A stretch of DNA of 64,000 bases, taken from Atrina japonica. Lineage: Eukaryota > Mollusca > Bivalvia > Pterioida > Pinnidae. Location of the stretch: NCBI GenBank assembly GCA_030159075.1, contig BROG01000440.1, positions 496,001-560,000 on the forward strand, in the 5' to 3' direction. Below the pieces are notes generated by a model. The model was not told the DNA's origin and did no database searches. It saw only the letters and a list, made by a program, of their open reading frames with translations. Position 1 is the stretch's first letter. Each line of letters begins with the position of its first letter. The position numbers were made by a program, and so were the translations under genes. Shown one piece after another: positions 426-53,409 of the stretch.

Positions 426-540
426 AATGAGTGTGTATTTGTATGATATTTGTAAACAATCTATTTTATATCTGTGAGCGATATATCTATATGTAATGAT
501 ATTTGGTACATGGTTTCATATACTCACATTATAAAAAATC

Positions 541-1953
541 TCAGATACCAAAGTATAAATCTTTAGGATATCCAGGATATAGATACAAATCTGGTAAAAA
601 TGGACAAACACGGACCTCTGGAAATCAAGAGGTAGGATCAGGTGTCATGGAGGAGTAAGTATCCCCTGTCGACCGGCCACAACTGCCGTGAGTCCACAGT
701 CAAACCCAAATGAAATAGGTGAGGTGTCACAATTGATAAGGACGTGTCAACAACCGCCATCGAACAGGCAACTCAACATTTCACTTAGTGAAACTGAGTA
801 ATCGCAAACAAGACTATTATACCTACCGTAAAATTGACATCAAACGCGGTTTTCGATATCCTTGTGTCAAAATTTGTCAGTGAGTAGTTTACCTCTGTAT
901 ATGAAATGTTCATATGTTGATCATACCCTCGTATATCGGATCATTTGTGAAATGTAAACACATGTGCGTGTGAATATGTGATATTACTACTTAAATATTG
1001 AAAATTTACGATGGGAAAGCCGAAATCGTCGCGTTTGTCGTAAAGTGTTGTTGTTAATTTCCCGTCTGTGTCTACAGTAAGTAAAATGTCCAAGTATGAA
1101 GCGTGTGAACTAGATTCTTTTGTATCTTTAATTTCTAGTTCGCTGGGATATATCGCATTCACATATGTATGGAAATTCTCATGATTAATTGACAAAACGG
1201 CGTTGCTTTATCTCATTGTCAAATCAAAGGGCACCGCTAGCTTTTTTCTTTTGATTCAGCAGTTTTTGAATGAAATCTGAATAAAGGAATAAAGGAAAAG
1301 GTCAGCCAATAAAGGTGCACAATTGGTTCCCATATGAATGCCGACAGTTTATTGAAAGACCAAGTCTTCGAACGTTACAAATATATTGTCTATTAGAAAT
1401 TCCAGCATTATTTTATATCAACGTCAGTGTATTTATATGTAGAATAAGAGTGGTGATGGAGAAAATAAGTATCATGATAACCAATCACTAGATATTTAAA
1501 TTTTCGGGTACCAACTTTAGTGAAAAAAAAGGTTGTCTATGATGCTAAAAAGTATCTCTTTTAATTTTTATGGGGAATGTTGTATGTTTTGATACAGTGA
1601 ATTTGAGAAAAAATATGTGCCTTCAAATTTTCTAAAAGTTGTTTAAAATTTTTAAGTATCCACATCTGACTTACACCGCTTCTGGAATAAGAAACTGTAC
1701 AGTGTTGTTGAAGAGTCTCCTTAACGGCTGTCAGTGTGTTGGTAAGGACTAAAGATAAAGGTTAAGTAGAACATTTGCTGGATCCTGCTATGTACCTCTG
1801 CTTATACGGGGTTTTGTGAAGTTTAGATATCCAGTATAAATATAGTATCTCAAAGACAATATGGGTTGTAGGTACATCAAAAGAGCGTAATACGGACACG
1901 TGATTTTGAAGGATCTCATTCTTAGAAAGTGGGTAAGCCGAAAGCTTAAACAT
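541..1953 (-). pseudogene. PLE reverse transcriptase remnant (copy A)
   Basis: Read on the minus strand this is a decayed Penelope-like element running from 'YPLSKNEILQ' and 'LHKTPYKQRYIAG' (1953-1762), through a degraded palm region, to the C-terminal 'YLDILLTVDTDGK' and 'DFGFPIVNF' blocks (1195-941), followed by the family's ~230-bp 3' tail (about 780-541). The order is the same as in the intact copy at 48725-49830. It is dead: several frameshifts are present and the catalytic YIDD region (about 1215-1195) reads as a stop codon plus unrelated residues. The 5' part of the element, and any GIY-YIG endonuclease, is missing. The fingers-like N-terminal segment kept here is absent from the 311-codon copy, so the two together cover more of the element. 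Confidence 0.85.
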
Positions 1954-2698: not shown

Positions 2699-2702
2699 AT
2701 AT

Positions 2703-2945
2703 CGATGGCGGTTGTTGAGACGTCTGTACCAATTATGACGAGGATTTGTTACTCACGTATTTCATTTTAATTTGACTGTTGACTCACGGTGGGTGTGACC
2801 GGTCGACCGGGGATGGTTAATCCTCCATGGCACCTGATCTCATCTCTTGATTCCAAGAGGTCCGTGTTTGTCCATTTTTACAAGATTTATACCTATATCC
2901 TGGACATCCTAGTGATTTATACCTTGGTATCTGAGACGTTTTATA
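2703..2945 (+). mobile_element. Solo PLE 3' tail
   Basis: Contains the whole 3' tail in order: 'ggcggttgttgagacgtctg', 'gtgaccggtcgac', 'cctccatggcacctgatc', 'gtccgtgtttgtccattttta', 'tcctggacatcct' and the terminal 'ttggtatctgag'. No reverse-transcriptase coding sequence precedes it; its left edge is the same point where the ORF of the coding copy ends. Confidence 0.8.
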
Positions 2946-3218
2946 TACAATAGTTACTGGCATAGACAAAACTACGCGCATGTTTCTATCCGTATCAGAA
3001 GACTGCACGAGATTGTTGAAGCGGAAAAATTCAACGAGAACGTCGAATGTACTTGTAATTTCGATTATTCATTGGAACTTCTTCATTTTTTACTTCGATA
3101 CAACGATTAAGTGTAGTCTGCTGATATGGATAGAAACATTGTTTGGTTTTGTGTTTATTACATACCCCTTATTTATTAATTGTGTACACAAAATTCAAAT
3201 TTATTACTATTTTGTTTT

Positions 3219-9009: not shown

Positions 9010-9290
9010 TAAATCGAATTTAAATCGAGTAATTATATACTTACGTAATATTTGGCACTGATAACACATTTTGAATTCTATATTTTTTAAAAGTTAAGGT
9101 AGTCATTCTTACAGTGGTTACTCTTAATTTGGCAATACATTAAGATTAATTATTTGGTTTTATATGATACCATTGTCACTTTAGAAAATCTCTTTTAAAT
9201 TGAAGGTCAACTGATTTAGTCTAATTGACAAAAAACGATCGTTTTGGAATTATGCTAATATTATTTTATCAGAATATAGACAATGATGCT
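9010..9290 (+). mobile_element. Old copy of the hammerhead element
   Basis: Collinear with 18700-18960: 'gtaatatttggcac', 'aaggtagtcattcttacagtggttactctta', 'atatgataccattgtcactttagaaaat', then a ruined hammerhead at 9205-9250. The core reads ctgattt instead of CTGATGA, the stem-II arms gtc/gac remain, the GAAA box is aaaa and the stem-III palindrome acgatcgt is kept. Ends shortly after the ribozyme. Confidence 0.7.
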
Positions 9291-12966: not shown

Positions 12967-13455
12967 GTTTCCACATTTAAGTAGTAATATCCCTCAGACA
13001 CCCGCATATGGAGTTTATATTTCACAAATGACCCGATATGCCAGGGCGTCTATAACATATGAAGATTTCATATACAGAGGTAAACTACTCACTGACAAAT
13101 TATTGACACAGGGATACCGAAAACCGCGTTTAATGTCAACGTTCAATTTTACGGTCGGTATAATAGTCTTGATTGCGACTACTCTGTTTCACTAAGTGAA
13201 ATGTTGTGTTGCCTTTTCGTTGGCGGTTGTTGAGACGTCTGTACCAATTGTGACGAGGATACACTCCTCATGTATATCATTGGACTTGACTGTGGACTCA
13301 CGGCGGGTGTGACCGGTCGACAGGGAATGCTTACTCCTCCATGGCACCTGATCCCACCTCTTGGTTTCCAGAGGTCAGTGTTTGTCCATTTTTCCGGATT
13401 TGTATCTATGTCCTGGACATTTTATTGATTTATACTTTGGTATCTGAGAATTTTT
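12967..13455 (+). pseudogene. 5'-truncated PLE: RT C-terminus plus tail (copy C)
   Basis: Begins in the coding region at 'FPHLSSNIPQ' and keeps 'PAYGVYISQM', 'YEDFIYRGKLLTDKLLTQGY' and 'KPRLMSTF' in one frame. A small deletion at about 13142 (loss of the RKFYGR codons) shifts the frame before the expected end at 13202. The full tail follows to 13455. None of the catalytic motifs is included, so it is a dead fragment. The preceding solo tail lies head-to-tail with it, as in partial-tandem PLE insertions. Confidence 0.85.
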
Positions 13456-15639: not shown

Positions 15640-15830
15640 CTGTACAATCAAATGTTTACTCGCATATTTCATTTGAATTTTACTATGGACTCACGGCGGG
15701 TGTTACCGGTCAAGAGGGGGTGTTTACTCCTGCATTGCACCTGATCTCACCCCTTGATTTCCAGAGGTCCATGTTTCTCCAATATCACCAGATTTGTATA
15801 TGCATGTTGGGCATTTTTTGGTACAATTTT
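15640..15830 (+). mobile_element. Solo PLE 3' tail
   Basis: 'tactatggactcacggcgggtgttaccggtcaaga', 'gcacctgatctcaccccttg', 'ccagaggtccatgtttctcca', 'accagatttgtat'. No RT sequence attached. The ORF 15612-15872 merely crosses it. Confidence 0.75.
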
Positions 15831-17875: not shown

Positions 17876-18425
17876 TTGTTTATAGACATAAATGATGCTA
17901 TATATAGATGCCTTGGCTTTTAGTACTATTTAAGATGAATGATGCTGCATATAGGTACATTGGCTGCTAGTCTCACTGGAGATAAATTATTTTGTCCATT
18001 GATCCAGAAACTATTAGTCTTACTTAGGATACATGATTCTGTTAATTGATACAAAAGTCATTAGTCTTACTTAGGGTAGATAAGGCGGTATAACGATAAA
18101 CAGTCTGTTAGTCTTAGGATAAATGACGCTGTATAACGATAAACAGGCTGTTAGTCTTACTTGGGATAAATGACCCTGTATAACAATACACAGGCTGTTA
18201 GTCCTAGGATAAATGACGCTGTATAGCGATAAACAGGCTGTTAGTCTTACTTGGGATAAATGGCCCTGTATAACAATACACAGGCTGTTAGTCGTAGAAT
18301 AACTGAGGCTGTATAACGATACACAGGCTGTTAGTCTTAGTTGAATGACGCTGTATAACGATATGCAGGCTGTTAGTCTTAGTATAAATGAGGCTGTATA
18401 ACGATATACAGGCTGTTAGTCTTAC
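17876..18425. repeat. ~47-bp minisatellite, left block
   Basis: Unit of the form 'ggataaatgacgctgtataa' + 'cgatacacaggctgttagtc' + 'ttacttg', with a shorter variant lacking the last few bases. Well conserved from 18090 on, degraded before that. Continues at 18963 after an insertion. Confidence 0.85.
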
Positions 18426-18521
18426 ATAGGACGGATTTTGGCTATACACTTTTAGAGATATTATTTGACCTTGCATGATACCACTTTATCTTTAGAAAAT
18501 ACACATACTTTTCAAATTGGA

Positions 18522-18567
18522 GCTCAACTGATGAAGTCTAATTGACAGAAACGATATCGTCTTGAGC
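18522..18567 (+). ncRNA. Hammerhead ribozyme, copy 1
   Basis: All core parts are present in order: stem I GCTCAA (18522-18527) pairing perfectly with TTGAGC (18562-18567); core CTGATGA (18528-18534); stem II GTC/GAC with loop TAATT, set off from the core by an A-A mismatch; GAA-A (18548-18551); stem III ACGATATCGT (18551-18560), a self-complementary 4-bp stem with a two-base loop; and C18561 at the cleavage position. The very short stem III suggests the motif works best as a dimer. The A-A mismatch next to the core and the 3-bp stem II may weaken it. Confidence 0.8.
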
Positions 18568-18883
18568 ATTATAACGTTGGTATTATGTTTATAATATTTA
18601 TAACCACTAAGTCGTTGCCACTGCTGGTGGACCGTTTGAGTCCCCGAGGGTATACATAAACCTAGTACCTGGTATTTCGGTACCAGCTGTTCATCTTATA
18701 CTAAAGTAATATTTAGCACAGTTAAAACTATTTAAATTCGAAAATTGTCTAAAGCTAAGATAGTCATTTTTTTTTACAGTGGTTACTCTTAGACGGATTT
18801 TGGCTATACACATTTAGAGATATTATTTGGCCTTGCATGATACCACTTTATCTTTAGAAAATACACATACTTTTCAAATTGGA

Positions 18884-18929
18884 GCTCAACTGATGAAGTC
18901 TAATTGACAGAAACGATATCGTCTTGAGC
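18884..18929 (+). ncRNA. Hammerhead ribozyme, copy 2
   Basis: Identical in all 46 positions to copy 1, exactly 362 bp downstream: stem I 18884-18889/18924-18929, core 18890-18896, GAA 18910-18912, stem III 18913-18922, cleavage expected after C18923. Cleavage at both sites of one transcript would release 18562-18923, a 362-nt RNA. Confidence 0.8.
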
Positions 18930-18962
18930 ATTATAACTTTGGTATTATGTTTATAATATAGG

Positions 18963-19280
18963 ATAAATGACGCTGTATAACGATACACAGGCGGCTAGTC
19001 TTACATAGGATAAATAAGGCGGTATAACGATGCACATGCTATTAGTCTTACGTAGGATAAATGATTGATAGATAGGCTTACTTTGGATAAATGATGCCGT
19101 ATATTAATGCATATGCTGTTAGCCTTTTTAGAATAAATGTATAACAATACACAGACTGTTAATCTTACTTAGGATATATGACGCCGTACATTGGTATATG
19201 TGCTATCAATCTTTCTTTGGATAAATGATGCCTTACAACATCTTATAGGCTGTTATCCTAATACTGTATATTGACATATA
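18963..19280. repeat. ~47-bp minisatellite, right block
   Basis: Continuation of 17876-18425: 'ggataaatgacgctgtataa', 'ttacataggataaataagg', 'ttactttggataaatgatgc' and so on, degrading towards 19280. Confidence 0.8.
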
Positions 19281-22184: not shown

Positions 22185-22215
22185 ATATAACTTTGGTATT
22201 ATGTTTATGATATTA
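22185..22215 (+). repeat. Short fragment of the hammerhead element
   Basis: 'ataactttggtattatgttt' is identical to the segment just 3' of ribozyme copy 2 (18931 on). Too short for certainty. Confidence 0.35.
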
Positions 22216-34571: not shown

Positions 34572-35136
34572 CTATCATATCACAGACGGGAAATTAGCAG
34601 CTAAGCTATACGATAAACGCGACGATTTCGGCTTTCCCATCGTAAATTTTCCACATTTAAGTAGTAATATCCCTCAGTCACCTGCATATGGAGTGTATAT
34701 TTCACAAGTGATCCGATATGCCAGGGCGTGCACAACATATGAAGATTTCATATACAGAGGTAAACTACTCACTGACAAATTATTGACACAGGGATATCGA
34801 AAACCGCGTTTAATGTCAACGTTCCGCAAATTTTATGGTCGGTGTAATAGTTTTGTTTGTGACTACTCTGTTTCACTAAGTGAAATGTTGATTTGCCTTT
34901 TCGTTGGCAGTTGTTGAGACGTCTGTACTAATTGTGACGAGGATACACTCCTCACGTGTTTCATTGGACTTGAATGTGGACTCACGGCGGGTGTGACCGG
35001 TCGACAGGGGATGCTTACTCCTCCCTGGCACCTGATCCCACCTCTTGGTTTCCAGAGGTCTGTGTTTGTCCATTTTTACTGGATTTGTATCTATGTCCTG
35101 GACATCCTATTGATTTATACTTTGGTATCTGAAATT
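34572..35136 (+). pseudogene. 5'-truncated PLE: RT C-terminus plus tail (copy D)
   Basis: The reading frame is open from about 34580 to the normal stop at 34915-34917, covering 'YDKRDDFGFPIVNF', 'PAYGVYISQV', 'YEDFIYRGKLLTDKLLTQGY', 'RKFYGR' and the C-terminal 'SLSEMLICLFVGSC'. The complete 3' tail follows to 'ggtatctga'. The catalytic motifs are lost by 5' truncation, the usual outcome of incomplete reverse transcription. About 340 bp downstream lies another PLE copy in the opposite orientation (35475-35875), so the two can pair as an inverted repeat. Confidence 0.9.
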
Positions 35137-35387
35137 TTTATATTTTATTTTGATATTAGGGAAAATCTATAATTGTAACACGTTATAGGACGACATAACC
35201 ATGTTAAAGTTATCCATGTCATATTAAAGGGTAACATATTACAAAAGGGATTCCGTTATGCTTTAAATCGTTATCCTTGATTTATCAAAGGTGAAAAAAT
35301 TATCATCAAAAGATATCTCTGCCCCCACTATTATTGCTAAAATATCTTTTACTTTACTGAATACGCCATTTAAACTGGGTTATTAAA

Positions 35388-35474: not shown

Positions 35475-35875
35475 AATCAAGGATACCAAAGTATAAATCG
35501 TCAAGATATTTATGGTACATAAACAAACTCGGTGAACACAGGCCAAACATGGACTTCTGAAAATCCAGTTGATCAGAGATCACGGAATCCAAGGTGTCAT
35601 AGAGGAGTAAGCATCCCCTGATAATCGGACACACCCGCCTTGAGTCCACAGTCAAATGCAAATGATATAAGTGAGGAATAAATCCTCGTCACAATCGTTA
35701 CAACGCAACAACTGCTACGGAACAGCCAGGTCAACATTTCATTCAAGGAAACACACTAATAGCAAACAGTGTCAGTTTACCATCCGTACAAATTTTCGAA
35801 AAATTGACATCAAACGCAATTCCCGATATTTCTGTGACAATAATTTATCAGATAGTAATTTACCTTTGTATATGA
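35475..35875 (-). pseudogene. PLE tail and RT C-terminus, parent of the 28-bp array (copy E')
   Basis: Minus-strand copy: tail (35475-35715, with a short insertion near 35580), then the end of the coding sequence with 'aaacgcaattcccgatattt' (the KPRL region) and 'taatttatcagatagtaatt', the codons for LLTDKL. At the FIYRG codons the sequence passes without a break into the minisatellite. The rest of the element is not found on the far side of the array (45513 on). Confidence 0.85.
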
Positions 35876-38800
35876 TCAGTTAGTCGTTTACCTCTGTATA
35901 TGATCAGTTAGTAGTTTGTCTCTGTATATGATGAGTTAGTAGTTTACCTCTGTATATGATGAGTTAGTAGTTTACTTCTGTATATGATGAGTTAGTAGTT
36001 TACCTCTGTATATGATGAGTTAGTAGTTTACCTCTGTATATGATGAGTTAGTAGTTAACCTCTGTATATGATGAGTTAATAATTAACCTCTGTATATGAT
36101 GAGTTAGTAGTTTACCTCTGTATATGATCAGTTAGTAGTTTACCTCTGTATATGATCAGTTAGTAGTTTACCTCTGTATATGATCAGTTAGTAGTTTACC
36201 TCTGTATATGATCAGTTAGTAGTTTACCTCTGTACATGATGAGTTAGTAGTTTACCTCTGTATATGATCAGTTAGTAGTTTACCTCTGTATATGATCAGT
36301 TAGTAGTTTACCTCTGTATATGATCAGTTAGTAGTTTACCTCTGTATATGATCATTTAGTAGTTTACCTCTGTAAATGATGAGTTAGTAGTTTACCTCTG
36401 TATATGATGAGTTACTAGTTTACCTTTACATGTGCTCTGTTAGTAGTTTACTTCTGTATATAATCAGTTAGTAGTTTACCTCTGTATAAGATGAGTTAGT
36501 AGTTTACCTCTTTATATGATGAGTTAGTAGTTTACTTCTGTATATGATGAGTTAGTAGTTTACCTCTGTATATGATGAGTTAGTAGTTTACTTCTGTATA
36601 TGATGAGTTAGTAGTTTACCTCTGTATATGATGAGTTAGTAGTTTACGTCTGTATATGATCAGTTAGTAGTTTACCTTTACATGTGATCAGTTAGTAGTT
36701 TACCTCTGTATATGAGTTAGTAGTTTACCTCTGTATATAATCAGTTACTAGTTTACCTCTGTATATGATCAGTTAGTAGTTTACATCTGTATATGATGAG
36801 TTAGTAGTTTACCTCTGTATATGATGAGTTAGTAGTTTACCTCTGTATATGATGAGTTAGTAGTTTACCTCTTTATATGATGAGTTAGTAGTTTGTGTCT
36901 GTATATGATGAGTTAGTAGTTTACCTCTGTATAAGATGAGTTAGTAGTTTACCTCTGTATATGATGAGTTAGTAGTTTACCTCTGTATATGATGAGTTAG
37001 TAGTTTACCTCTGTATATGATGAGTTAGTAGTTTACTTCTGTATATGATGAGTTAGTAGTTTACCTCTGTATATGATGAGTTAGTAGTTTACTTCTGTAT
37101 ATGATGAGTTAGTAGTTTACCTCTGTATATGATCAGTTAGTAGTTTACCTTTACATGTGATCTGTTAGTAGTTTACCTCTGTATATGAGTTAGGTGTTTA
37201 CCTCTGTATATGATAAGTTAGTAGTTTACCTCTGTATATGATGAGTTACCAGTTTATCTCTGTATATGATCAGTTAGTAGTTTACCTCTGTATATGAGTT
37301 AGTAGTTTACCTCTGTATAAGATGAGTTAGTAGTTTACCTCTGTATATGATGAGTTAGTAGTTTACCTCTGTATATGATGAGTTAGTAGTTTACCTTTGT
37401 ATATGATGAGTTAGTAGTTTACGTCTGTATATGATGAGTTAGTAGTTTAACTCTGTATATGAGTTAGTAGTTTACCTCTGTATATAATCAGTTAATAGAT
37501 TACCTCTGTATATGATGAGTTAGTAGTTTACCTCTGTATAAGATGAGTTAGTAGTTTACCTCTATATATGATGAGTTAGTAGTTTACCTCTGTATATGAG
37601 TTAGTAGTTTACCTATGTATATGAGTTAGTAGTTTACCTCTGTATATGATCAGTTAGTAGTTTACCTCTGTATATGATCAGTTAGTAGTTTACCTCTGTA
37701 TATGATGAGTTTGTAGTTTACCTCTGTATATGATGAGTTAGTAGTTTACCTCTGTATATGATGAGTTAGTAGTTTACTTCTGTATATGATGAGTTAGTAG
37801 TTTACCTCTGTATATGATGAGTTAGTAGTTTACTTCTGTATATGATGAGTTAGTAGTTTACCTCTGTATATGATGAGTTAGTAGTTTACCTCTGTATATG
37901 ATCAGTTAGTAGTTTACCTTTACATGTGATCAGTTAGTAGTTTACCTCTGTATATGAGTTAGTAGTTTACCTCTGTATATAATCAGTTACTAGTTTACCT
38001 CTGTATATGATCAGTTAGTAGTTTACATCTGTATATGATGAGTTAGTAGTTTACCTCTGTATATGATGAGTTAGTAGTTTACCTCTGTATATGATGAGTT
38101 AGTAGTTTACCTCTTTATATGATGAGTTAGTAGTTTGTGTCTGTATATGATGAGTTAGTAGTTTACCTCTGTATAAGATGAGTTAGTAGTTTACCTCTGT
38201 ATATGATGAGTTAGTAGTTTACCTCTGTATATGATGAGTTAGTAGTTTACCTCTGTATATGATCAGTTAGTAGTTTACCTTTACATGTGATCTGTTAGTA
38301 GTTTACCTCTGTATATGAGTTAGGTGTTTACCTCTGTATATGATAAGTTAGTAGTTTATCTCTGTATATGATGAGTTACCAGTTTATCTCTGTATATGAT
38401 CAGTTAGTAGTTTACCTCTGTATATGAGTTAGTAGTTTACCTCTGTATAAGATGAGTTAGTAGTTTACCTCTGTATATGATGAGTTAGTAGTTTACCTCT
38501 GTATATGATGAGTTAGTAGTTTACCTTTGTATATGATGAGTTTAGTAGTTTACGTCTGTATATGAATGAGTTAGTAGTTTAACTCTGTATATGAGTTAGT
38601 AGTTTACCTCTGTATATAATCAGTTAGTAGATTACCTCTGTATATGATGAGTTAGTAGTTTACCTCTGTATAAGATGAGTTAGTAGTTTACCTCTATATA
38701 TGATGAGTTAGTAGTTTACCTCTGTATATGAGTTAGTAGTTTACCTATGTATATGAGTTAGTAGTTTACCTCTGTATATGATCAGTTAGTAGTTTACCTC

Positions 38801-41800
38801 TGTATATGATGAGTTAGTAGTTTACCTCTGTATATGATGAGTTAGTAGTTTACCTCTGTATATGATGAGTTAGTAGTTTACCTCTGTATATGATGAGTTA
38901 GTAGTTTACCTCTGTATATGATGAGTTAGTAGTTTACCTCTGTATATGATGAGTTAGTAGTTTTACCTCTGTATATGATCAGTTAGTAGTTTACCTCTGT
39001 ATATGATCAGTAGTAGTAGTTTACCTCTGTATATGATGAGTTAGTAGTTTACCTCTGTATATGATCAGTTAGTAGTTTACCTCTGTATATGATCAGTTAG
39101 TAGTTTACCTCTGTATATGATCAGTTAGTAGTTTACCTTTGTATATGAGTTAGTAGTTTACCTATGTATATGAGTTAGTAGTTTACCTCTGTATATGGTC
39201 AGTTAGTAGTTTACCTCTGTATATGATCAGTTAGTAGTTTACCTCTGTATATGATCAGTTAGTAGTTTACCTCTGTATATGATCAGTTAGTAGTTTACCT
39301 CTGTATATGATCAGTTAGTAGTTTACCTCTGTATATGATGAGTTAGTAGTTTGTGTCTGTATATGATGAGTTAATAGTTTACCTCTGTATATGATGAGTT
39401 AGTAGTTTATATCTGTATAAGATGAGTTAGTAGTTTACCTCTGTATATGATGAGTTAGTAGTTTACTTCTGTATATGATGAGTTAGTAGTTTACCTCTGT
39501 ATATGAGTTAGTAGTTTACATCTGTATATGATGAGTTAGTAGTTTACATCTGTATAAGATGAGTTAGTAGTTTACCTCTGTATATGATGAGTTAGTAGTT
39601 TACATCTGTATAAGATGAGTTAGTAGTTTACCTCTGTATATGATGAGTTAGTAGTTTACATCTGTATAAGATGAGTTAGTAGTTTACTTCTGTATATGAT
39701 GAGTTAGTAGTTTACCTCTGTATAAGATGAGTTAGTAGTTTACCTCTATATATGATGAGTTTACTTCTGTATATGAGTGTAGTTTACCTCTGTATCAGTT
39801 TACTTCTGTATATGATGAGTTAGTAGTTTACTTCTGTATATGATGAGTTAGTAGTTTACTTCTGTATATGATGAGTTAGTAGTTTACATCTGTATATGAT
39901 GAGTTAGTAGTTTACCTCTGTATATGATGAGTTAGTAGTTTACATCTGTATTTGACAGTTGTAGTATCTGTATGATGAGTTAGTAGTTTACATCTGTATA
40001 TGATGAGTTAGTAGTTTACATATCTGATCAGTTAGTAGTTTACCTAGTTATGACAGTTAGTAGTTTACCTGATGATATGAGTTAGTAGTTTACATCTGTA
40101 TATGTTATAGAGTTAGTAGTAGTTTACATCTGTATATGATGAGTTAGTAGTTTACTCTGTATATGATCAGTTAGTAGTTTACTTCTGTATATGATGAGTT
40201 AGTAGTTTACATCTGTATATGATGAGTTAGTAGTTTACTTCTGTATATGATGAGTTAGTAGTTTACATCTGTATATGATGAGTTAGTAGTTTACCTCTGT
40301 ATATGATGAGTTAGTAGTTTACATCTGTATATGATCAGTTAGTAGTTTACTTCTGTATATGATGAGTTAGTAGTTTACCTGTATATGATCTGTATTTACC
40401 TCTGATCAGAGTTAGTAGTTTACATCTTTTACATGAGTTATCATCTGTTAGTAGTTTACCTCTGTATATGAGTTAGTAGTTTACCTCTGTATATAATCAG
40501 TTACTAGTTTACCTCTGTATATGATGAGTTAGTAGTTAGTATAAGATTTAGTATTTACTTCTGTATATGATGAGTTAGTAGTTTACTTCTGTATATGATG
40601 AGTTAGTAGTTTAGCTCTGTATATGATGAGTTAGTAGTTTACGTCTGTATATGATGAGTTAGTAGTTTGTGTCTATGTATATGATGTATATGAGTAGTAT
40701 TTTACCTCTGTATAAGATTAGTTAGTAGTTTACCTCTGTATATGATGAGTTAGTAGTTTACCTGTATATGATATAGTTTACATCAGTGAAGAGTTAGTAG
40801 TTTACCTTTACATGATGAGTTAGTAGTTTACATCTGTTATGTAGTTTTACATCTGTATATGAGTTAGTAGTTTACCTCTGTATATAATCAGTTAGTAGTT
40901 TACCTCTGTATATGATGAGTTACCAGTTTATCTCTGTATATGATCAGTTAGTAGTTTACCTCTGTATATGAGTTAGTAGTTTACCTCTGTATAAGATGAG
41001 TTAGTAGTTTGTGTCTGTATATGATCAGTTAGTAGTTTACCTTTACATGTGCTCTGTTAGTAGTTTACCTCTGTATATAAGTCAGTATAGTAGTTTTTAC
41101 TCTGTATAAGAATGAGTTACTTAGTTTACCTCTGTATATGATGAGTTAGTAGTTTACCTCTGTATATGATGAGTTAGTAGTTTACCTCTGTATATGAAGA
41201 GTTAGTATTTTACCTCTGTATATGATGAGTTAGTAGATTACATCTGTATATGATGAGTTAGTAGTTTACATCTGTATATGATGAGTTAGTAGTTTACCTC
41301 TGTATATGATGAGTTAGTAGTTTACATCTGTATATGATGAGTTAGTAGTTTACCTCTGTATATGATGAGTTAGTAGTTTACATCTGTATAAAGATGAGTT
41401 AGTAGTTTACCTCTGTATATGATGAGTTAGTTTATCTCTGTTTACCTCTGTATATGAGTTGAGTTTAGTAGTTTACCTCTGTTTGTGTCTGTATATGATC
41501 AGTTAGTAGTTTACCTCTGTATAGGATGAGTTAGTAGTTTACCTCTGTATATGATGAGTTAGTAGTTTACCTCTGTATATGATGAGTTAGTAGTTTACCT
41601 CTGTATATGATGAGTTAGTAGTTTACCTCTGTATATGATGAGTTAGTAGTTTACCTCTGTATATGAGTTAGACATCTGTATATGATTAGTAGTTTACATC
41701 TGTATATGATGAGTTAGTAGTTTACCTCTGTATATGATGAGTTAGTAGTTTACCTCTGTATATGATGAGTTAGTAGTTTACATCTGTATATGAGTTAGAG

Positions 41801-44800
41801 TTAGTATAAGTTTACATCTGTATAAGATGAGTTAGTAGTTTTACCTCTGTATAAGATGATGAGTTTAGTAGATTTTACATCTGTATAAGATGAGTTAGTA
41901 GTTTACCTCTGTATATGATGAGTGAGTTAGTAGATTTACAGTCTCTGTATATAAGATGATATATCTGTTAGTAGAGTTAGTACTTCTCTGTATATGATGA
42001 GTTAGTAGTTTACTTCTGTATATGATGAGTTAGTAGTTTACTTCTGTATATGATGAGTTATGAGTTAGTAGTTTACTTCTGTATATGATGAACCTCTGTA
42101 GTAGTTTACTTCTGTATATGATGAGTTAGAGTTTACCTCTGTTAGTAGTTAGTTACATCTGTATAAGATGATGAGTTATATGTAGTTTTTACCTCTGTAT
42201 ATGATGAGTTAGTGAGTTAGATAGTTTACATCTGTATATGATGAGTTAGTAGTTTACTTCTGTATATGATGAGTTAGTATGATGAGTTTTACATCTGTAT
42301 ATGATGAAGTAGTTTACATCTGTATATGATGAGTTATAGTACATCTGTATATGATGATGAGTTTAGTATGTTTACATCTGTATATGATGAGTTAGTAGTT
42401 TACATCTGTATATGATGAGTTAGTAGTTTACTTCTGTATATGATGAGTTAGTAGTTTACATCTGTATATGATGAGTTAGTAGTTTACTTCTGTATATGAT
42501 GAGTTAGTAGTTTACATCTGTATATGATGAGTTAGTAGTTTACCTCTGTATATGATGAGTTAGTAGTTTACATCTGTATATGATCAGTTAGTAGTTTACT
42601 TCTGTATATGATGAGTTAGTAGTTTACCTCTGTATTTGATCAGTTAGTAGTTTACCTTTACATGTGATCAGTTAGTAGTTTACCTCTGTATATGAGTTAG
42701 TAGTTTACCTCTGTATATAATCAGTTACTAGTTTACCTCTGTATATGATCAGTTAGTAGTTTACATCTGTATATGATGAGTTAGTAGTTTACCTCTGTAT
42801 ATGATGAGTTAGTAGTTTAGCTCTGTATATGATGAGTTAGTAGTTTACGTCTGTATATGATGAGTTAGTAGTTTGTGTCTGTATATGATGAGTTAGTAGT
42901 TTACCTCTGTATAAGATTAGTTAGTAGTTTACCTCTGTATATGATGAGTTAGTAGTTTACCTCTGTATATGATCAGTTAGTAGTTTACCTTTACATGTGA
43001 TCTGTTAGTAGTTTACCTCTGTATATGAGTTAGGTGTTTACCTCTGTATATAATCAGTTAGTAGTTTACCTTTGTATATGATGAGTTAGTAGTTTACATC
43101 TGTATATGATGAGTTAGTAGTTTACCTCTGTATATGTGGTAGTAGTTTACCTCTGTATATGATCAGTTAGTAGTTTACCTCTGTATATGATGAGTTACCA
43201 GTTTATCTCTGTATATGATCAGTTAGTGGTTTACCTCTGTATATGAGTTAGTAGTTTACCTCTGTATAAGATGAGTTAGTAGTTTACCTCTGTATATGAT
43301 GAGTTAGTAGTTTACCTCTGTATATGATGAGTTAGTAGTTTACCTTTGTATATGATGAGTTACTAGTTTACGTCTGTATATAATGAGTTAGTAGTTTAAC
43401 TCTGTATATGAGTTAGTAGTTTACCTCTGTATATAATCAGTTAGTAGTTTACCTCTGTATATGATGAGTTAGTAGTTTACCTCTGTATATGATGAGTTAG
43501 TAGTTTACCTCTGTATATGATGAGTTAGTAGTTTACCTCTGTATATGATCAGTTGGTAGTTTACCTCTGTATATAATCAGTTAGTAGTTTACCTCTGTAT
43601 AAGATGAGTCAGTAGTTTACCTCTGTATATGATGAGTTAGTAGTTTACCTCTGTATATGATCAGTTAGTCGTTTACCTCTGTATATGATCAGTTAGTAGT
43701 TTGTGTCTGTATATGATCAGTTAGTAGTTTACCTCTGTATATGATGAGTTAGTAGTTTACCTCTGTATATAATCAGTTAGTAGTTTACCTCTGTATATGA
43801 TCAGTTGGTAGTTTACCTCTGTATATAATCAGTTAGTAGTTTACCTCTGTATAAGATGAGTCAGTAGTTTACCTCTGTATATGATGAGTTAGTAGTTTAC
43901 CTCTGTATATGATGAGTTAGTAGTTTACCTCTGTATATGATCAGTTGGTAGTTTACCTCTGTATATAATCAGTTAGTAATTTACCTCTGTATAAGATGAG
44001 TCAGTAGTTTACCTCTGTATATGATGAGTTAGTAGTTTACCTTTGTATATGATCAGTTAGTCGTTTACCTCTGTATATGATCAGTTAGTAGTTTGTGTCT
44101 GTATATGATCAGTTAGTAGTTTACCTCTGTATATGATGAGTTAGTAGTTTACCTCTGTATATAATCAGTTAGTAGTTTACCTCTGTATATGATCAGTTGG
44201 TAGTTTACCTCTGTATATAATCAGTTAGTAGTTTACCTCTGTATAAGATGAGTCAGTAGTTTACCTCTGTATATGATGAGTTAGTAGTTTACCTCTGTAT
44301 ATGATCAGTTAGTCGTTTACCTCTGTATATAATCAGTTAGTAGTTTACCTCTGTATATGATGAGTTGTAGTTTACCTCTGTATATGATGAGTTAGTAGTT
44401 TACCTCTGTATATGATGAGTTAGTAGTTTACCTCTGTATATGATCAGTTGGTAGTTTACCTCTGTATATAATCAGTTAGTAGTTTACCTCTGTATAAGAT
44501 GAGTCAGTAGTTTACCTCTGTATATGATGAGTTAGTAGTTTACCTCTGTATATGATCAGTTAGTCGTTTACCTCTGTATATGATCAGTTAGTAGTTTGTG
44601 TCTGTATATGATCAGTTAGTGGTTTACCTCTGTATATGATGAGTTAGTAGTTTACCTCTGTATATAATCAGTTAGTAGTTTATCTCTGTTTATGATGAGT
44701 TAGTAGTTTACCTCTGTATATGATGAGTTAGTAGTTTACCTCTGTATATGATCAGTTAGTCGTTTACCTCTGTATATGATCAGTTAGTAGTTTGTGTCTC

Positions 44801-45512
44801 TATATGATCAGGTAGTAGTTTACCTCTGTATATGATGAGTTAGTAGTTTGTGTCTGTATATGATCAGTTAGTAGTTTACCTCTGTATATGATCAGTTAGT
44901 AGTTTACCTCTGTATATGATGAGTTAGTAGTTTGTGTCTGTATATGATCAGTTAGTAGTTTACATCTGTATATGATCAGTTAGTAGTTTACCTCTGTATA
45001 TAATCAGTTAGTAGTTTACATCTGTATATGATCAGTTAGTAGTTTACCTCTGTATATGATGAGTTAGTAGTTTACCTCTGTATATGATGAGTTAGTAGTT
45101 TACCTCTGTATATGATCAGTTAGTAGTTTACCTCTGTATATGATCAGTTAGTAGTTTACCTCTGTATATGATCAGTTAGTAGTTTACCTCTGTATATGAT
45201 CAGTTAGTAGTTTACCTCTGTATATGATCAGTTAGTAGTTTACCTCTGTATATGATGAGTTAGTAGTTTGTGTCTGTATATGATGAGTTAGTAGTTTACC
45301 TCTGTATATGATCAGTTAGTAGTTTACCTCTGTATATGATGAGTTAGTAGTTTACCTCTGTATATGATGAGTTAGTAGTTTACATCTGTATATGATCTGT
45401 TAGTAGTTTACCTCTGTATATGACGAGTTAGTAGTTTACATCTGTATATGATCTGTTAGAAATTTACCTCTGTATATGATCAGTTAGTAATTTATCTCAG
45501 TATATGTTCAAT
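35848..45512. repeat. 9.7-kb minisatellite, 28-bp unit derived from PLE coding sequence
   Basis: About 345 head-to-tail units built on 'agtttacctctgtatatg' with flanks 'tcagttagt' and 'a'. The 28-bp consensus equals, with one substitution, the reverse complement of codons F256-D265 of the reverse transcriptase at 48672-49607 (FIYRGKLLTD). Units fall into variant classes (gatgag/gatcag, tataag, tataat, acatct, acttct, gtgtct, and 'tttacatgtgatc'). Variants recur in order: the 'agttgg' variant at 43551, 43803, 43943, 44195 and 44446 gives spacings of 252, 140, 252 and 251 bp, i.e. nine or five units. A longer block recurs at 36671/37913 (about 1.24 kb). 28 is not a multiple of three and every frame meets stops, so it encodes nothing. 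Confidence 0.97.
39760..42400. repeat. Irregular core of the 28-bp array
   Basis: Here units are broken, fused or shortened (for example near 39770-39800, 39950-40030, 40380-40440, 40680-40860, 41080-41110, 41440-41480 and 41930-42370), unlike the regular array on each side. Either an old recombining core or poor assembly consensus. Confidence 0.7.
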
Positions 45513-47070
45513 TAGGGTACCCTCACAGGATTGGCGTTAATCTAAAGAACGCGTATTAATTTACGGCACTGACCGAATGCTGGCGATATCTTCAGATTTT
45601 GAAAAATCTTGTTACGCCTGTCAAATACGACAAAAAGAGCAACGATTGTCACTTCGTAAGCCGAGCGCTTGGGGAAGAACAGTCATTGCCATTTATAGTG
45701 TTTTTATTATGACACGGAATGGAGTTCATGACCCGCCACTTTTGAGTGGGACGCTCTGCTTCTATACTACCACGATAGGTGCAAGTAATGGTGTAAAAAT
45801 TATTTTGAAAACTGATTTTTCTTTCATGGTACATTATTTCTGAAGTCTAATCCAGCAATTTCAGAAAGCTTAGTTTTTGTCATGGCAAAATGAAATAAGA
45901 AACGTAAAACGTCAAGCACTCGATAACCATACCATTTAAAAATGCAATGGATGGTGGTCATGATGGTTTTATGATAATGATAAATAATGTATAAACTTTT
46001 ATGAATTATGTTTTGTGTTGTTTCATTATGATGAAAAAAACTAACGAACTTGGCAGTAATTCAAAATTCTATTGGAAATATATATTATGCTCAATTAGTG
46101 AGAATTTTAACTAATTGTTTTTATATTTCATAACAACTTAGTGTTTAATCTTTTGTAATAAAATTTTTATAAAATAATAAAAAAAGACAATATGTACAAT
46201 TATACTAAATGTGATAGTACTGCTAATTCGGAAACGTGGATTACCGCATATCCGTTTCCTCTCACACTTATCAACTCCACCGTTGCATGAACTTGTGTGA
46301 TAATCTGGGTAAAATTTACACATTGTACCTGTGTCTGAATTAGGTGCATTTCGGACAAACAACAAAATTTTCTTGGAATATGCTTTATTTTCTACATTTA
46401 TCTATAAAATGTTAACCTTAACCTGATCGCTTAAACTACTAATGACGCACCCACATTATACTTACGTAAGCCGTAGCAGAAATAGATTAAACATTTCTCA
46501 AAAAACAAATTGTATAATTGATGGAGTGATGACGTGAGACAAGTGCAATTCACATACTGTCATTCTAAGAACTAAATTTTAAACAAATCAAAGCAGTTAA
46601 CATGTAGGATTTAATGGCCTATTACTAAAAGGGCAATAAACAATTAAAAAATTCGTATTTCAATCTACATTTTCATAAAAATTATCACATCCAATGACCA
46701 ACTTTAGGTAAAAGAAAATGAAAAAATGTGTTTTTGTTCAAAATCAGATGAAAAGATTTTTTCCTTGCTATATTTTACGTTTTTCTGAAATGCGTCAAAT
46801 TCAACAATTTTAAAAATCATTAGCTTTTGTCTCAGGGAAATGAAACAGGAAGCGTTCCTGTACTCGATAACCACATAAGACTGCTACAAGGTCAAATGAT
46901 TATAAATGAAACTAGACCCTTATTTTATTATGGATTTTCCACATGTTGATACGGGTATGAAGATTGGATTTCATTAACTTTTCATGTAGCTCTTTGATTC
47001 TGTGGTTTTCCTATTTAATATGACAGAAACCAAATTGTAAACCAGAAGAAGTTCGGGAAATAATAAACAA
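45513..47070. other. Region right of the array with a diverged duplication
   Basis: No PLE sequence follows the array. 45790-45950 and 46735-46885 are old copies of one sequence: 'tcaatttcagaaagcttagtttttgtc' against 'caattttaaaaatcattagcttttgtc', then 'aaatgaaa.a.gaa.cgt' and 'actcgataacca'. An 88-codon plus-strand ORF (45577-45843) enters the first copy, so it is probably not a gene. A 75-codon minus-strand ORF (46138-46365) has no recognisable feature. Confidence 0.5.
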
Positions 47071-47999: not shown

Positions 48000-48280
48000 C
48001 AAAAACAAATGCTCAAGACGATCATGTCAGTCAATAAGACTTCATCAGTTGAGTCCAAATTATATATATTCGAAAAAAGTGGTATCATACAGGGTCAAAT
48101 AGTAAATCTATATGTATAATCTAATCCGTCTCAGAAGTACCCTCTGTAAAACTTTGAATACCTTAGTTTTTGAGAAGGTTAGAATTCCAATGGTGTTATC
48201 TGAACGAAATATTACCGTAGTATAAAATAATCGGCTTCTACCGACATACCAGTTATAGGGACACTGACGGTCCAGCAGCA
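48000..48280 (-). mobile_element. Old copy of the hammerhead element
   Basis: Reverse complement of the element at 18431-18960 in order: 'ccagcagcagtgg' (the 'ccactgctgg' block) at 48275, 'acagagggtactt' near 48150, 'ggtatcatacagggtcaaat' near 48085, and a mutated hammerhead at 48011-48054 in which stem I and CTGATGA remain but GAA-A reads GAC-A. Confidence 0.7.
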
Positions 48281-48424
48281 GTGGTTATAAATATTATAAT
48301 ATTTGTGTGACTAATAACATTAAGTTTTCTCTGCAGTATGTCAATAGTTATTGTCATGTCTTGGAATTAAGATTGGAATTCATCCTGCCGATTTTCATTA
48401 AAAACGAACAAAATATCTCTGTAT

Positions 48425-48640
48425 GTACTTTGATACTAGGATACATATACAAAACTGGTGAATATTGGACAAACGTGGACCTCTGGAACTCCAGAGGTGG
48501 GATCATGTGCCAAGGCATCCCCTGTTGACAGGTCACACCCGCCGTGAGTCCACAGTCAAATTAAAATGAAATAAGTGCGGGACAAAACCCCGTCACAGCT
48601 GGTATAGAGGACTCAACAACCGCTATTGAACAGGTATCGG
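48425..48640 (-). mobile_element. PLE 3' tail, inverted next to a coding copy
   Basis: Plus-strand text 'aactggtgaatattggacaaa', 'gtggacctctggaa', 'aggtgggatcatgtgccaagg', 'catcccctgttgacaggtc', 'acacccgccgtgagtccaca'. It lies about 85 bp upstream of the plus-strand coding copy, in opposite orientation. Confidence 0.8.
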
Positions 48641-48671
48641 TGAAAAAGCAATCCTATTTAAAACCACAAAA

Positions 48672-49607
48672 TTGCTTTGGGAATATGCCATTATGATATT
48701 AAGTGCAGTTAAACATTTTTACAATTTTTCTCGAATTCACAGTATCAAAACTTATGACTTCTCTACTCTTTACACTACTATTCCACATAAAAAATTAAAA
48801 GAAAGACTTTTCAGCATCATACACAACTGCTTTTTCACTAAAGGTGGTACCCGAAAATTTAAATATCTAGTGATTGGCTATCAGGATACTTATTTCGTCA
48901 AACACCACTCTGATTCTACACATAAATATACTGAAGTTGATATTAAAAACATGCTGGAATTTCTAATAGACAATATATTTGTAATGTTCGGAGATGTGGT
49001 CTTTCAACAAACTGTCGGCATTCCTATGGGAACCAATTGTGCTCCTTTATTGGCCGACCGGTTCCTTTATTCATACGAAGCAGACTTCATTCAGAAAAAG
49101 TTAGCGGTGTCCTTTAATTTGACATTTAGATATATCGACGATGTTTTGTCAATTAATAATGACAATTTTCATACATATGTCAATGCGATATATCCCAGCG
49201 AACTAAAAATTAAAGATACAACAGAATCAAGCACACACGCTTCATACTTAGACATTTTACTTAATATAAACACAGACGGGCAATTAGCAACTAATCTATA
49301 CGATAAACGCAACGATTTCGGCTTTCCCATCGTAAATTTTCCACATTTAAGTAGTCATATCCCTCAGTCACCCGCATATGGAGTTTATATTTCACAAATG
49401 ATCCGATATGCCAGGGCGTGCACAACATATGAAGATTTCATATACAGAGGTAAACTACTCACTGACAAATTATTGACACAGGGATATCGAAAACCGCGTT
49501 TAATGTCAACGTTCCGCAAATTTTATGGTCGGTATAATAGTCTTGTTTGCGACTACTCTGTTTCACTAAGTGAAATGTTGAGTTGCCTTTTCGTTGGCGG
49601 TTGTTGA
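48672..49607 (+). CDS. Penelope-like element reverse transcriptase, 5'-truncated
   Basis: The best-preserved coding copy: 311 codons without interruption. PLE homology starts at about residue 18, so the first residues and the ATG are chance flank and the true N-terminus is missing. Motif A is 'TYDFSTLYTTIPH' (residues 27-39, catalytic Asp29), motif B 'GIPMGTNCAPLLAD' (116-129), motif C 'FRYIDD' (152-157) with both aspartates. The C-terminal block 'YEDFIYRGKLLTDKLLTQGY' spans 253-272, and the protein ends in 'FVGGC'. Compared with the copy at 62146-62424 about six residues are lost after 'EADFI'. No GIY-YIG nuclease follows the RT, although most PLEs have one at the C-terminus; some invertebrate PLEs carry it N-terminally, which truncation would have removed. 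Truncated, so probably not autonomous. It could still be transcribed. Confidence 0.9.
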   Translation: MLWEYAIMILSAVKHFYNFSRIHSIKTYDFSTLYTTIPHKKLKERLFSIIHNCFFTKGGTRKFKYLVIGYQDTYFVKHHSDSTHKYTEVDIKNMLEFLIDNIFVMFGDVVFQQTVGIPMGTNCAPLLADRFLYSYEADFIQKKLAVSFNLTFRYIDDVLSINNDNFHTYVNAIYPSELKIKDTTESSTHASYLDILLNINTDGQLATNLYDKRNDFGFPIVNFPHLSSHIPQSPAYGVYISQMIRYARACTTYEDFIYRGKLLTDKLLTQGYRKPRLMSTFRKFYGRYNSLVCDYSVSLSEMLSCLFVGGC

Positions 49608-49830
49608 GACGTCTGTACCAATTGTGACGAGGATACACTCCTCACGTGTTTCATTGGACTTGACTGTGGACTCACGGCGGGTGTGACCGGTCGACAGGGG
49701 ATGCTTACTCCTCCATGGCACCTGATCCCACCTCTTGGTTTCCAGAGGTCCGTGTTAGTCCATTTTTACCGGATTTGTATCTATGTCCTGGACATTCTAT
49801 TGATTTATGCTTTGGTATCTGAGGTTTTTA
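49608..49830 (+). mobile_element. PLE 3' tail of the coding copy
   Basis: The reference tail for the window: 'gacgtctgtaccaattgtga', 'ctcacggcgggtgtgaccgg', 'tactcctccatggcacctga', 'ttccagaggtccgtgtt', 'tgtcctggacatt', ending 'tttggtatctgagg'. Its first 10 bp continue directly from the stop codon. Confidence 0.85.
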
Positions 49831-50072
49831 TTTTGTAAAGGCGCTGACTAATTTTAGAACCATCAAAGAAACGCATAAAACCTGTAAACTTAATCTTACA
49901 ATAATTTACCATTGTTTCAACCAGGCACAGACCTGCGCTACAAAGAGTTTACAGGCGTTGTGGTTACAATATGACTCTTACTACTACTGCGATTGGACAG
50001 AAGACTATTGTTAGATGGCATAGCGTTTGCAAGCTTGCACGCCCCGGAATACTGAAAATCCATTGTTGATAG
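49831..50072. other. Unrecognised stretch
   Basis: No feature recognised. Confidence 0.5.
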
Positions 50073-51706: not shown

Positions 51707-52412
51707 TCAATCATGGGTATATTACATGACAAATATGTACTAGTCCCAGCAGACAAATCCTCAATTAATATAGTTTTTATTTGTAAGGCGCATTACTATA
51801 ATTGTTTATCAGAAGAACTAGGGTTTAATACGAATTCTGGTAATCCTACATACACACATATCCCAGTTTCAAAAGACGAGATCCTTCAATGTCCGTATTA
51901 TACTCTTTTGGTGTACCTACAACCGATACTGATTTTGAGCTACCATATTTTTATTTACACCTAAACTTCGCAAACCCCCATATAAGCAGAGGCACATAGC
52001 AGGATTCATCAAACCTTTATCTTTACTCCTTACCAAGATACTCACAGCTGTTAAACAGAAATTTTAGCAATACTGTACAGTTGCTTATTCCAGAAGCGGT
52101 TTAAATCAGATGTGGATTCTCATAATTCTAAACAGTTTTTAAAAATTTGAAGGCAAACAATTTTTCTCAAATTCACTGTATCAAAACATACGACTTTTCT
52201 ACACTTTACACGACAATTCCACATGAAAATTTAAAATAGAGACTTTTTAGCATCACAGACAACTTTTTTTTTCACCAGAAGTGGTACCCGAAAATTTAAA
52301 CATTTAGTCATTGGTTATAATGATACTAATTTGTCCATCACCACACTGATACTACACATAAATACGCTAAAGTTGATATAAAAAGATGCTGGAATTTCTA
52401 ATAGACAAGCTA
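51707..52412 (+). pseudogene. PLE reverse transcriptase, N-terminal part (copy F)
   Basis: Carries the most N-terminal RT sequence in the window: 'HDKYVLVPADKSSINIVF', 'CKAHYYNCLSEELGFNTNSG', 'YTHIPVSKDEILQ' (ORF 51713-51964). A deletion of several bases after DEILQ (about 51905) shifts the frame. The collinear sequence continues with stops and shifts through 'KPLSLLLTKILTAVK', the 'TYDFSTLYTTIPH' motif A region (about 52187-52225) and 'TRKFKHLVIGY', and ends abruptly at 'LEFLIDK' (52412), before motif B. It overlaps copy A and the 311-codon copy and so links them into one element order. Confidence 0.85.
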
Positions 52413-52414
52413 AC

Positions 52415-53095
52415 ATAGCTATTTTAACATCTTGTAGGCAAATACGCGTGGTGAAAACAGACGACCTTAAACCAGGCTCATGTGTACTTCCGGTATTATG
52501 TGTGACGGTTATCAACATCCTAGTAGTTAACAAAAATGTTTCCTCACAGAAAAAATCCTGAATGATATGTGGTGTTCAGTGGTATATGTTCAAAACACTA
52601 TATATTGTAATGAACATATTGTTTACACTATATGTAGAAATAGTAATAATTTACAAGCCTTGTGGTTTACATGTAGTATATCGAATTTTCAATTGTCTGG
52701 ACTCCCTCGGGGTCACACAGAAAAGTCCGGTCAACTGGTCGTCTTGTCAACATAAAACAATGGAACTCTGTGGGACATGGCATGAGTGCGTATAAGTAGG
52801 GATAATCCGTACTTGCCCATGAGTGTATTCATTTTAATTATGTACCAGGTACCATCAACACTGTTAAAGAATAATATACCAAAGTATGATTCTGACCTTT
52901 TTCTTCTAACATTTGTAATTAAACTTAAACTGTGTTTACACTGTAAACGACATACGCGAAGTAGTCTTTAACACAGTTTCACAAGATGGTTTCTATTGTT
53001 TTCAATATGTTAATGTAACGAATGATTATATGGGGGATTACTAAAACTGAAAAAAAATATTGCACTGTAATTTCATAAAAACTGCATTCATAAAT
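52415..53095. other. Unrecognised stretch
   Basis: Several ORFs of 61-77 codons on both strands (52315-52533 minus, 52562-52795 plus, 52786-52971 plus) show no domain. Confidence 0.45.
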
Positions 53096-53129
53096 TAGTT
53101 GCACGGGGTGAAAAAGGTAAAATATCTAA

Positions 53130-53153
53130 GATGTTTGTCTGTCTGTCTGTCTA

Positions 53154-53208
<55 letters not shown>

Positions 53209-53294
53209 GTCTGTCTGTCTGTCTGTCTGTTTATCTATCTCTGTATCAATATGTCTACCTACCTACCTACCTACCTATCTACCTACCTACCTAC

Positions 53295-53331
<37 letters not shown>

Positions 53332-53356
53332 CACCCATCGTCCGTCCGTTCGCTCG

Positions 53357-53409
<53 letters not shown>

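What the first reader, a model, noticed from the sequence alone, without database searches (positions are those of the whole stretch)
18426..18962. Tandem hammerhead ribozymes: a retrozyme-like insertion with its target duplication and intact pre-insertion sequence
Seen: two identical 46-nt hammerhead motifs on the plus strand (18522-18567 and 18884-18929), each with a 6-bp stem I (GCTCAA/TTGAGC), CTGATGA, a stem II, GAA-A, a self-complementary stem III ACGATATCGT and C at the cleavage position. They are exactly 362 bp apart, and the whole 527-bp segment (1.46 monomers, ~98% identical over the overlap) is bracketed by ATAGG/ATAGG inside a minisatellite whose unbroken version is present at 19004. 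Known: metazoan retrozymes are non-coding tandem units delimited by hammerheads, giving circular RNAs, proposed to be mobilised by Penelope-like elements. Inference: this is a recent insertion of a processed RNA of more than one unit length, predicted to yield a 362-nt circRNA (18562-18923).
Basis: partly seen in the sequence, partly recalled or inferred. Interest (0 to 1): 0.93.

Follow-up and report, generated by a model that had tools for sequence, protein, structure and literature searches.

The report
Ribozyme retroelement with a borrowed tail
A short non-coding repeat with hammerhead motifs occurs thousands of times in this animal genome; its copies look like DNA made from small RNA circles, and their fixed end resembles the end of an abundant gene-carrying retroelement that may do the copying.

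Summary
In detail: two identical 46-nt type I hammerhead motifs 362 bp apart in a 527-bp insertion (1.46 units) inside a minisatellite. They belong to a large dispersed family: 2258 exact ribozyme cores, 7029 exact 3' tails, reversed controls 0. Of 85 elements, 78 end at one site about 36 nt past the predicted cleavage point; 5' ends fit a uniform spread (26 elements). Only 1321 of 7029 tails continue exactly 8 nt further, against 3771 of 5813 at a site 11 nt upstream. Within-array differences are mostly private, array-fixed ones mostly shared with other arrays. This fits target-primed reverse transcription of a monomeric RNA circle. The terminal ~30 nt resemble the 3' end of an abundant telomerase-like RT element whose long relatives carry an N-terminal GIY-YIG nuclease (Naiad-type Penelope-like element; name recalled): of 718 windows of the unit, the best match ends exactly at the retrozyme's own 3' end. 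The helper link is moderate: short, and weak when unanchored. Self-cleavage and circular RNA were not testable; the ATAGG duplication is plausible but ambiguous.

The parts
18431..18957 (+). retrozyme insertion, 527 bp, 1.46 units (may run to 18959, the usual 3' end of the family)
18522..18567 (+). hammerhead motif 1, type I, predicted cleavage after C18561; stem III palindrome ACGATATCGT
   Evidence: not recognised by Rfam
18884..18929 (+). hammerhead motif 2, identical, predicted cleavage after C18923
   Evidence: not recognised by Rfam
18562..18923 (+). monomer, predicted 362-nt RNA circle; GC 0.337; consensus of 75 family units is 359 nt
   Evidence: circle itself not shown
18930..18959 (+). 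3' tail ATTATAACTTTGGTATTATGTTTATAATAT; fixed 3' end of the family, resembles the RT element's 3' end
18568..18597 (+). internal copy of the tail (unit 1), continuing past the usual 3' end
18426..18430 (+). left ATAGG of the possible target duplication
18958..18962 (+). right ATAGG of the possible target duplication
18014..19064 (+). 43-47 bp minisatellite into which the element inserted (18014-18431 and 18958-19064)
22186..22214 (+). 29-bp piece matching the tail, read as an extremely 5'-truncated retrozyme copy
   Evidence: compare tail-only copies
9036..9253 (+). old, diverged retrozyme relative (75% identity)
48008..48299 (-). old, diverged retrozyme relative with decayed hammerhead (74% identity)
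48630..49607 (+). open frame of a copy of the candidate helper: telomerase-like RT of an N-terminal GIY-YIG Penelope-like element
49804..49833 (+). 3' tail of that copy, TTTATGCTTTGGTATCTGAGGTTTTTATTT

Best explanation
It is a non-autonomous metazoan retrozyme. Inferred: transcripts of repeated units are cut at each hammerhead and closed to a ~360-nt circle. A Penelope-like RT nicks AT-rich DNA and starts cDNA synthesis at a fixed internal site of the circle, about 36 nt 3' of the cleavage point (~TTTATAATAT). It runs round about 0.1 to more than 9 times and falls off at random, giving one fixed 3' end, random 5' ends and tandem units that are identical at birth. Proposed helper: the genome's abundant telomerase-like RT element of N-terminal-GIY-YIG type, whose 3' end (..TTTATACTTTGGTATCTGAGATTTTTTATAT) the retrozyme resembles (..ATTATAACTTTGGTATTATGTTTATAATAT). 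Shown: fixed 3' end, spread of 5' ends, array homogeneity, family size, tail resemblance. Inferred: cleavage, circle, helper.
For: Fixed 3' end: 78 of 85 elements; 25 of 26 elements anchored on the ribozyme rather than the tail end at unit positions 34-44, with 5' ends not differing from uniform (KS p=0.53). Genome-wide, 1321 of 7029 tails extend exactly 8 nt beyond the end against 3771 of 5813 at a control site 11 nt upstream (test). Match to the inner sequence decays over the bases after position 36 into AT-rich target. Circle: of 66 within-array variants 48 occur in no other array, while 26 of 32 array-fixed non-major alleles do occur in other arrays (p=8e-7; 12 of 15 arrays; all 15: 89 of 120 and 31 of 40, p=1e-8). 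Mean divergence 1.1% within arrays, 2.6% between. Helper: best of 718 retrozyme windows against the RT element's terminal 31-mer ends exactly at position 36, and best of 392 windows of the RT element's 3' region is its own terminus; anchored shuffles 65 of 50000 and 12 of 50000; in 8 diverged RT-element copies the shared motif is 102/112 identical against 209/320 upstream, although those copies were picked by a match reaching near their end. RT-element class: 9 of 9 long relatives tested show GIY-YIG then RT, GIY-YIG above Pfam's cut-off in 5; the top 15 fold matches are telomerases. Precedent for internal initiation downstream of a hammerhead, at AT-rich targets, in a Penelope-like element: PMC11167929 (parts 1-2 of 4 read).
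Against: The shared tail is short: one 10-nt identical run, BLAST E 0.81, unanchored local alignment reached by 408 of 20000 shuffles; two other places in the window (17507, 4751) score as well as the retrozyme tail. I fixed the 31-mer's end by eye from the copies; the later alignment runs one T further. Old relatives at 9036 and 48008 do not show the CTTTGGTAT tail. No stable shared hairpin. Hammerhead has an A.A at 10.1/11.1, a competing fold, no Rfam match. The circle is not more stable than resampled sequence (z=-0.6). That 65 of 66 within-array variants sit in one unit does not discriminate: pseudo-arrays of units from different loci give 3495 of 3735. Unequal crossing-over could homogenise arrays. 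7 of 85 elements, and 2 fetched tail regions left out of the 85 (L093, L098), do not show the standard end. The RT matches to Pfam are below its cut-off in all proteins where they were found, the telomerase fold matches have TM-scores of only 0.26-0.42, and no copy in this genome was seen with its nuclease.
Confidence: 0.55

Rival explanations
1. Retrozyme moved from a circle as above, but by another retroelement: a hammerhead-bearing canonical Penelope-like element or a LINE. The tail resemblance is chance in AT-rich sequence.
For: Unanchored similarity is weak; canonical Penelope-like elements carry hammerheads and one starts internally (PMC11167929). I did not search this genome for canonical hammerhead-bearing elements or LINE 3' ends.
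Against: The match falls exactly on both 3' ends, anchored shuffles 65 and 12 of 50000, and the shared motif is the best-kept part of the RT element's end.
Confidence: 0.25
2. Template is a linear multimeric transcript of a genomic array, not a circle; the hammerhead is incidental.
For: Multi-unit copies follow equally from linear multimers. In the Anolis element, ribozyme mutants still inserted in vitro (PMC11167929). The one-unit pattern is also seen in pseudo-arrays.
Against: Variants between units of an array are mostly private (48 of 66), whereas array-fixed alleles are mostly shared with other arrays (26 of 32); in pseudo-arrays 1645 of 3735 variants are shared against 18 of 66 in real arrays. 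A linear copy of an older array should carry inherited unit-specific variants.
Confidence: 0.16
3. Ordinary satellite DNA spread by DNA-level processes (eccDNA, unequal crossing-over), with hammerhead-like sequence by descent.
For: Arrays of more than 9 units exist.
Against: Thousands of dispersed short copies with one fixed 3' end and scattered 5' ends, down to 32-nt tails, are not made by crossing-over.
Confidence: 0.04

Closest known systems
Metazoan non-LTR retrozymes (Cervera & de la Pena 2020, PMC7229834; parts 1-4 of 6 read)
   Same: Type I hammerhead in each unit, ~170-400 nt units in dimers to multimers, low GC, no LTR; mussel repeats are 350-390 bp with ~5000 ribozyme copies.
   Different: Here a fixed 3' terminus, scattered 5' truncation including fragments of 32 nt, and a tail like that of an RT element. 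[quoted passage not shown] Stem II begins with A.A.
N-terminal GIY-YIG Penelope-like elements (Naiad type; name, lack of canonical hammerheads and microsatellite bias recalled from Craig et al. 2021, not found in the library)
   Same: 3' tail resemblance, AT-rich targets, 5' truncation, very high copy number.
   Different: The retrozyme codes for nothing recognisable and bears a hammerhead; no hammerhead core was seen in the one 4-kb copy scanned.
Poseidon Penelope-like element of Anolis (PMC11167929, parts 1-2 of 4 read)
   Same: Internal start of reverse transcription at a tail site downstream of a hammerhead; AT-rich target.
   Different: Its start lies about 85-92 nt past the ribozyme cut (worked out from the paper's numbers), here ~36; C-terminal nuclease; autonomous.
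SINE/LINE pairs that share 3' tails (recalled)
   Same: Non-autonomous element carrying a helper-like 3' end.
   Different: Template here is inferred to be a circle, so the tail lies inside the RNA.

Membership tests
Metazoan non-LTR retrozyme | Type I hammerhead core in each unit | tested here: met
   Two hits in the window against 0.025 per resampled strand, allowing an A.A at 10.1/11.1; a stricter scan gave none and Rfam gave no match
Metazoan non-LTR retrozyme | Tandem units of 150-450 bp, dimers to multimers, dispersed in the genome | tested here: met
   units ~359 nt, more than 9 in the longest array read, thousands of copies
Metazoan non-LTR retrozyme | Low GC, non-coding, no LTR/PBS/PPT | tested here: inconclusive
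   GC 0.337, longest stop-free run 67 aa on the repeated circle; PBS/PPT not searched
Metazoan non-LTR retrozyme | Self-cleavage and circular RNA | not testable with these tools
   array variant pattern is indirect support for a circle
N-terminal GIY-YIG Penelope-like element (candidate helper) | Telomerase-like RT | tested here: met
   model of the 782-aa open frame of L099 (pLDDT 77); top 15 of 337 fold matches are telomerases, TM-scores 0.26-0.42
N-terminal GIY-YIG Penelope-like element (candidate helper) | GIY-YIG nuclease before the RT | tested here: inconclusive
   9 of 9 long relatives tested show it, 5 above cut-off; the copy read here matches them only from about residue 230 on
Tail-sharing non-autonomous partner | 3' end shared with the autonomous element | tested here: inconclusive
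   anchored tests positive; short and weak when unanchored

The most novel reading that the evidence does not exclude
A self-cleaving circular-RNA retroelement exploits a hammerhead-less Penelope-like element by mimicking its 3' start signal: the helper RT starts inside the circle at the mimicked tail and runs round it, making tandem copies directly at the nicked target. This would name the mobiliser of a metazoan retrozyme and show that the ribozyme serves to make the template, not to recruit the RT.
Probability: 0.5. Interest if true: 0.82.

Novelty: new variant of a known kind. Interest (0 to 1): 0.7.

Why it matters
Which enzyme moves animal retrozymes, and whether their circles are the real templates, has been open. 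A fixed 3' start site, array homogeneity and a helper-like tail make both questions testable in one genome with one purified RT.

Tried and rejected
A shared stem-loop in the two tails: not stable, dropped. A link through the hammerhead itself: no hammerhead core in the helper copy scanned. Highly self-paired circle: not above resampled sequence. Long TSDs: of 85 elements 8 have flank repeats scoring >=28 against 0.5 expected; two lie in minisatellites, three in AT runs, two away from the junctions, and only L080 (56 bp) looks like a true long duplication. Many copies seeming to start near unit position 313: with a two-unit query the same loci start at various positions, so this was mostly an effect of the alignment. 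Sequence search of the PDB with the RT alone or as a profile gave nothing useful. Organism: not named; RT relatives with names include the pearl oyster Pinctada, so a bivalve is likely (inference).

Counts left out: set A took only elements of at least 380 bp (shorter fragments in those 40 loci were dropped). Of 30 ribozyme-anchored loci 4 were second hits in the same element; anchoring on the ribozyme excludes copies shorter than about 70 nt. Of 20 tail regions 3 (L085 the same element as L050; L093 and L098 irregular) and one element cut by the edge of L079 were not entered in the 85. 3 of 15 multi-unit arrays were left out of the first variant count, then included.

Full report
OBSERVATION. 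The partial and complete units agree at 162 of 165 positions. Nothing else in the window fits the structural motif, and a resampled strand gives 0.025 hits. Two cautions: the first pair of stem II is A.A, and neither Rfam nor minimum-energy folding recognises the ribozyme. The palindromic stem III is kept in two forms, ACGATATCGT in most copies read and ACGATCGT in more diverged ones.

FAMILY. The host genome is 832 Mb in 2347 contigs; the window lies in contig 440. A 40-nt ribozyme core occurs exactly 2258 times and a 21-nt tail 7029 times, with no match for reversed patterns. Three sets were read: 41 elements of at least 380 bp from 40 loci that best match the window unit (set A), 26 elements from the first 30 ribozyme hits in contig order (B), and 18 elements from 17 of 20 fetched regions around tail hits in contig 1 that were not themselves beside an exact ribozyme hit (C). 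In all 20 tail regions read the tail belongs to a retrozyme match; in L087 and L091 the match is no more than the 32-nt tail itself.

ENDS. In 78 of the 85 elements the copy ends at the same place, GTTTATAATAT, about 36 nt after the predicted cleavage site. Agreement with the inner sequence falls from 77 and 75 of 78 at the last two tail bases to background by the eighth base after the anchor. Seven elements lack the standard scorable end, as do two tail regions left out of the 85 (L093, L098). In set B, which was not chosen by the tail, 25 of 26 end at unit positions 34-44 and 5' ends do not depart from uniform (KS p=0.53). Genome-wide, 1321 of 7029 tails (19%) continue exactly for 8 nt past the end, whereas 3771 of 5813 (65%) do so at a control site 11 nt upstream. 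A fixed 3' end with scattered 5' truncation is the mark of reverse transcription primed at the target (established for LINE-like elements; recalled).

TEMPLATE. Units of one array differ by 1.1% on average and units of different arrays by 2.6% (75 units, 40 arrays). In 12 of the 15 arrays with two or more complete units, 48 of 66 within-array variants occur in no other array, but 26 of 32 alleles fixed in an array against the family majority do occur in other arrays (p=8e-7). With all 15 arrays the counts are 89 of 120 and 31 of 40 (p=1e-8). 65 of the 66 variants are carried by one unit, but this does not discriminate, since pseudo-arrays of four units drawn from different loci give 3495 of 3735; what differs is the share found elsewhere, 18 of 66 in real arrays against 1645 of 3735 in pseudo-arrays. 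This is what copying one circle several times predicts; later homogenisation cannot be excluded.

TARGET. Flanks are AT-rich. Short direct repeats are only slightly above control (37 elements) and long ones rare. Three elements lie in copies of the RT element (L068, L078, L087). Against L099 the two sides of the target meet with a gap of 0, 0 and +3 bp and a few bp of overlap that may belong to element or target; other copies of the RT element give values from -13 to +3. L068 and L078 share site and near-identical truncation and are probably one event copied. The ATAGG pair of the window copy fits this but cannot be told from a repeat-length duplication inside a minisatellite.

HELPER. The window carries several fragments of an RT element with 60,210 first-look candidates in the genome; the 123 scored are 90% identical or more. 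A 782-aa frame open from stop to stop (L099) has relatives of about 1000 aa. Nine of nine tested carry GIY-YIG before the RT (mostly at about residues 130-225), five above Pfam's cut-off; their RT matches are below Pfam's cut-off. L099 matches them from about residue 230 on, so it lacks the nuclease. The predicted fold (pLDDT 77) has telomerases as its top 15 of 337 matches, with modest TM-scores. This is the make-up of N-terminal-nuclease Penelope-like elements (Naiad type, recalled). In 28 copies its 3' end reads GATTTATACTTTGGTATCTGAGATTTTT(T)ATATT by majority, after which conservation stops; the 31-mer occurs 1694 times exactly. Compared with all 718 windows of the retrozyme circle, this end fits best the window that ends at position 36, the end found from the retrozyme copies; in reverse, the retrozyme tail fits best the RT element's own terminus among 392 windows. 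Anchored dinucleotide shuffles reach the score in 65 and 12 of 50000. Of 127,940 30-mers in the window, 91 reach it; they cluster on copies of the RT element, the retrozyme tail itself, and two other places at 17507 and 4751. Against this stand the unanchored test (408 of 20000), BLAST (E 0.81), and two old retrozyme relatives without the motif. I rate the helper assignment at about one half to 0.55.

LITERATURE. Cervera and de la Pena 2020 (PMC7229834, parts 1-4 of 6 read) describe the family and name Penelope-like elements as a strong candidate on co-occurrence, tandem copies and shared ribozymes. The review PMC7761336 (passages) says no motif points to the mobiliser. Frangieh et al. 2024 (PMC11167929, parts 1-2 of 4 read) show internal initiation at a tail downstream of a hammerhead in a Penelope-like element, with AT-rich targets. 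Passages of PMC3846280 describe tails and pseudo-LTRs of such elements with TSDs of 8-10 bp or none, one junction formed by microhomology. I found no report of a fixed 3' end or a helper-like tail in a retrozyme (open-licence papers only, most seen as listings).

VERDICT. By make-up a member of a known and remarkable class, with a helper-like tail not described for it in what I saw; its genome-wide copies show how it is inserted and point to the enzyme that may move it.

Noticed in passing
window 35847-45515: 9.7-kb satellite, 346 copies of a 28-bp unit that matches 28 nt of the RT element's coding sequence in antisense, beside an antisense fragment of that element at 35592-35875: a satellite apparently grown from a retroelement fragment.
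   Followed up: partly
window 534-1578(-), 2702-2946(+), 12968-13455(+), 15667-15799(+), 34581-35145(+), 52157-52408(+), 61649-62654(-): Further fragments of the same RT element, 83-96% identical to the copy at about 48721-49837.
   Followed up: partly
window 63483-63512: A short tail-only piece of the RT element followed by another fragment of it, the counterpart of the tail-only retrozymes.
   Followed up: no
L068, L078: The same retrozyme insertion site and near-identical truncation in two copies of the RT element on different contigs: one event later copied with its host element, or a hotspot.
   Followed up: no
L080:2365-2523 (turned so that the tail is on +): Retrozyme copy flanked by an imperfect ~56-bp direct repeat abutting both ends.
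   Followed up: no
window 53071-53524: Long simple-repeat open frames (YLSI/SVCL) in low-complexity DNA.
   Followed up: no
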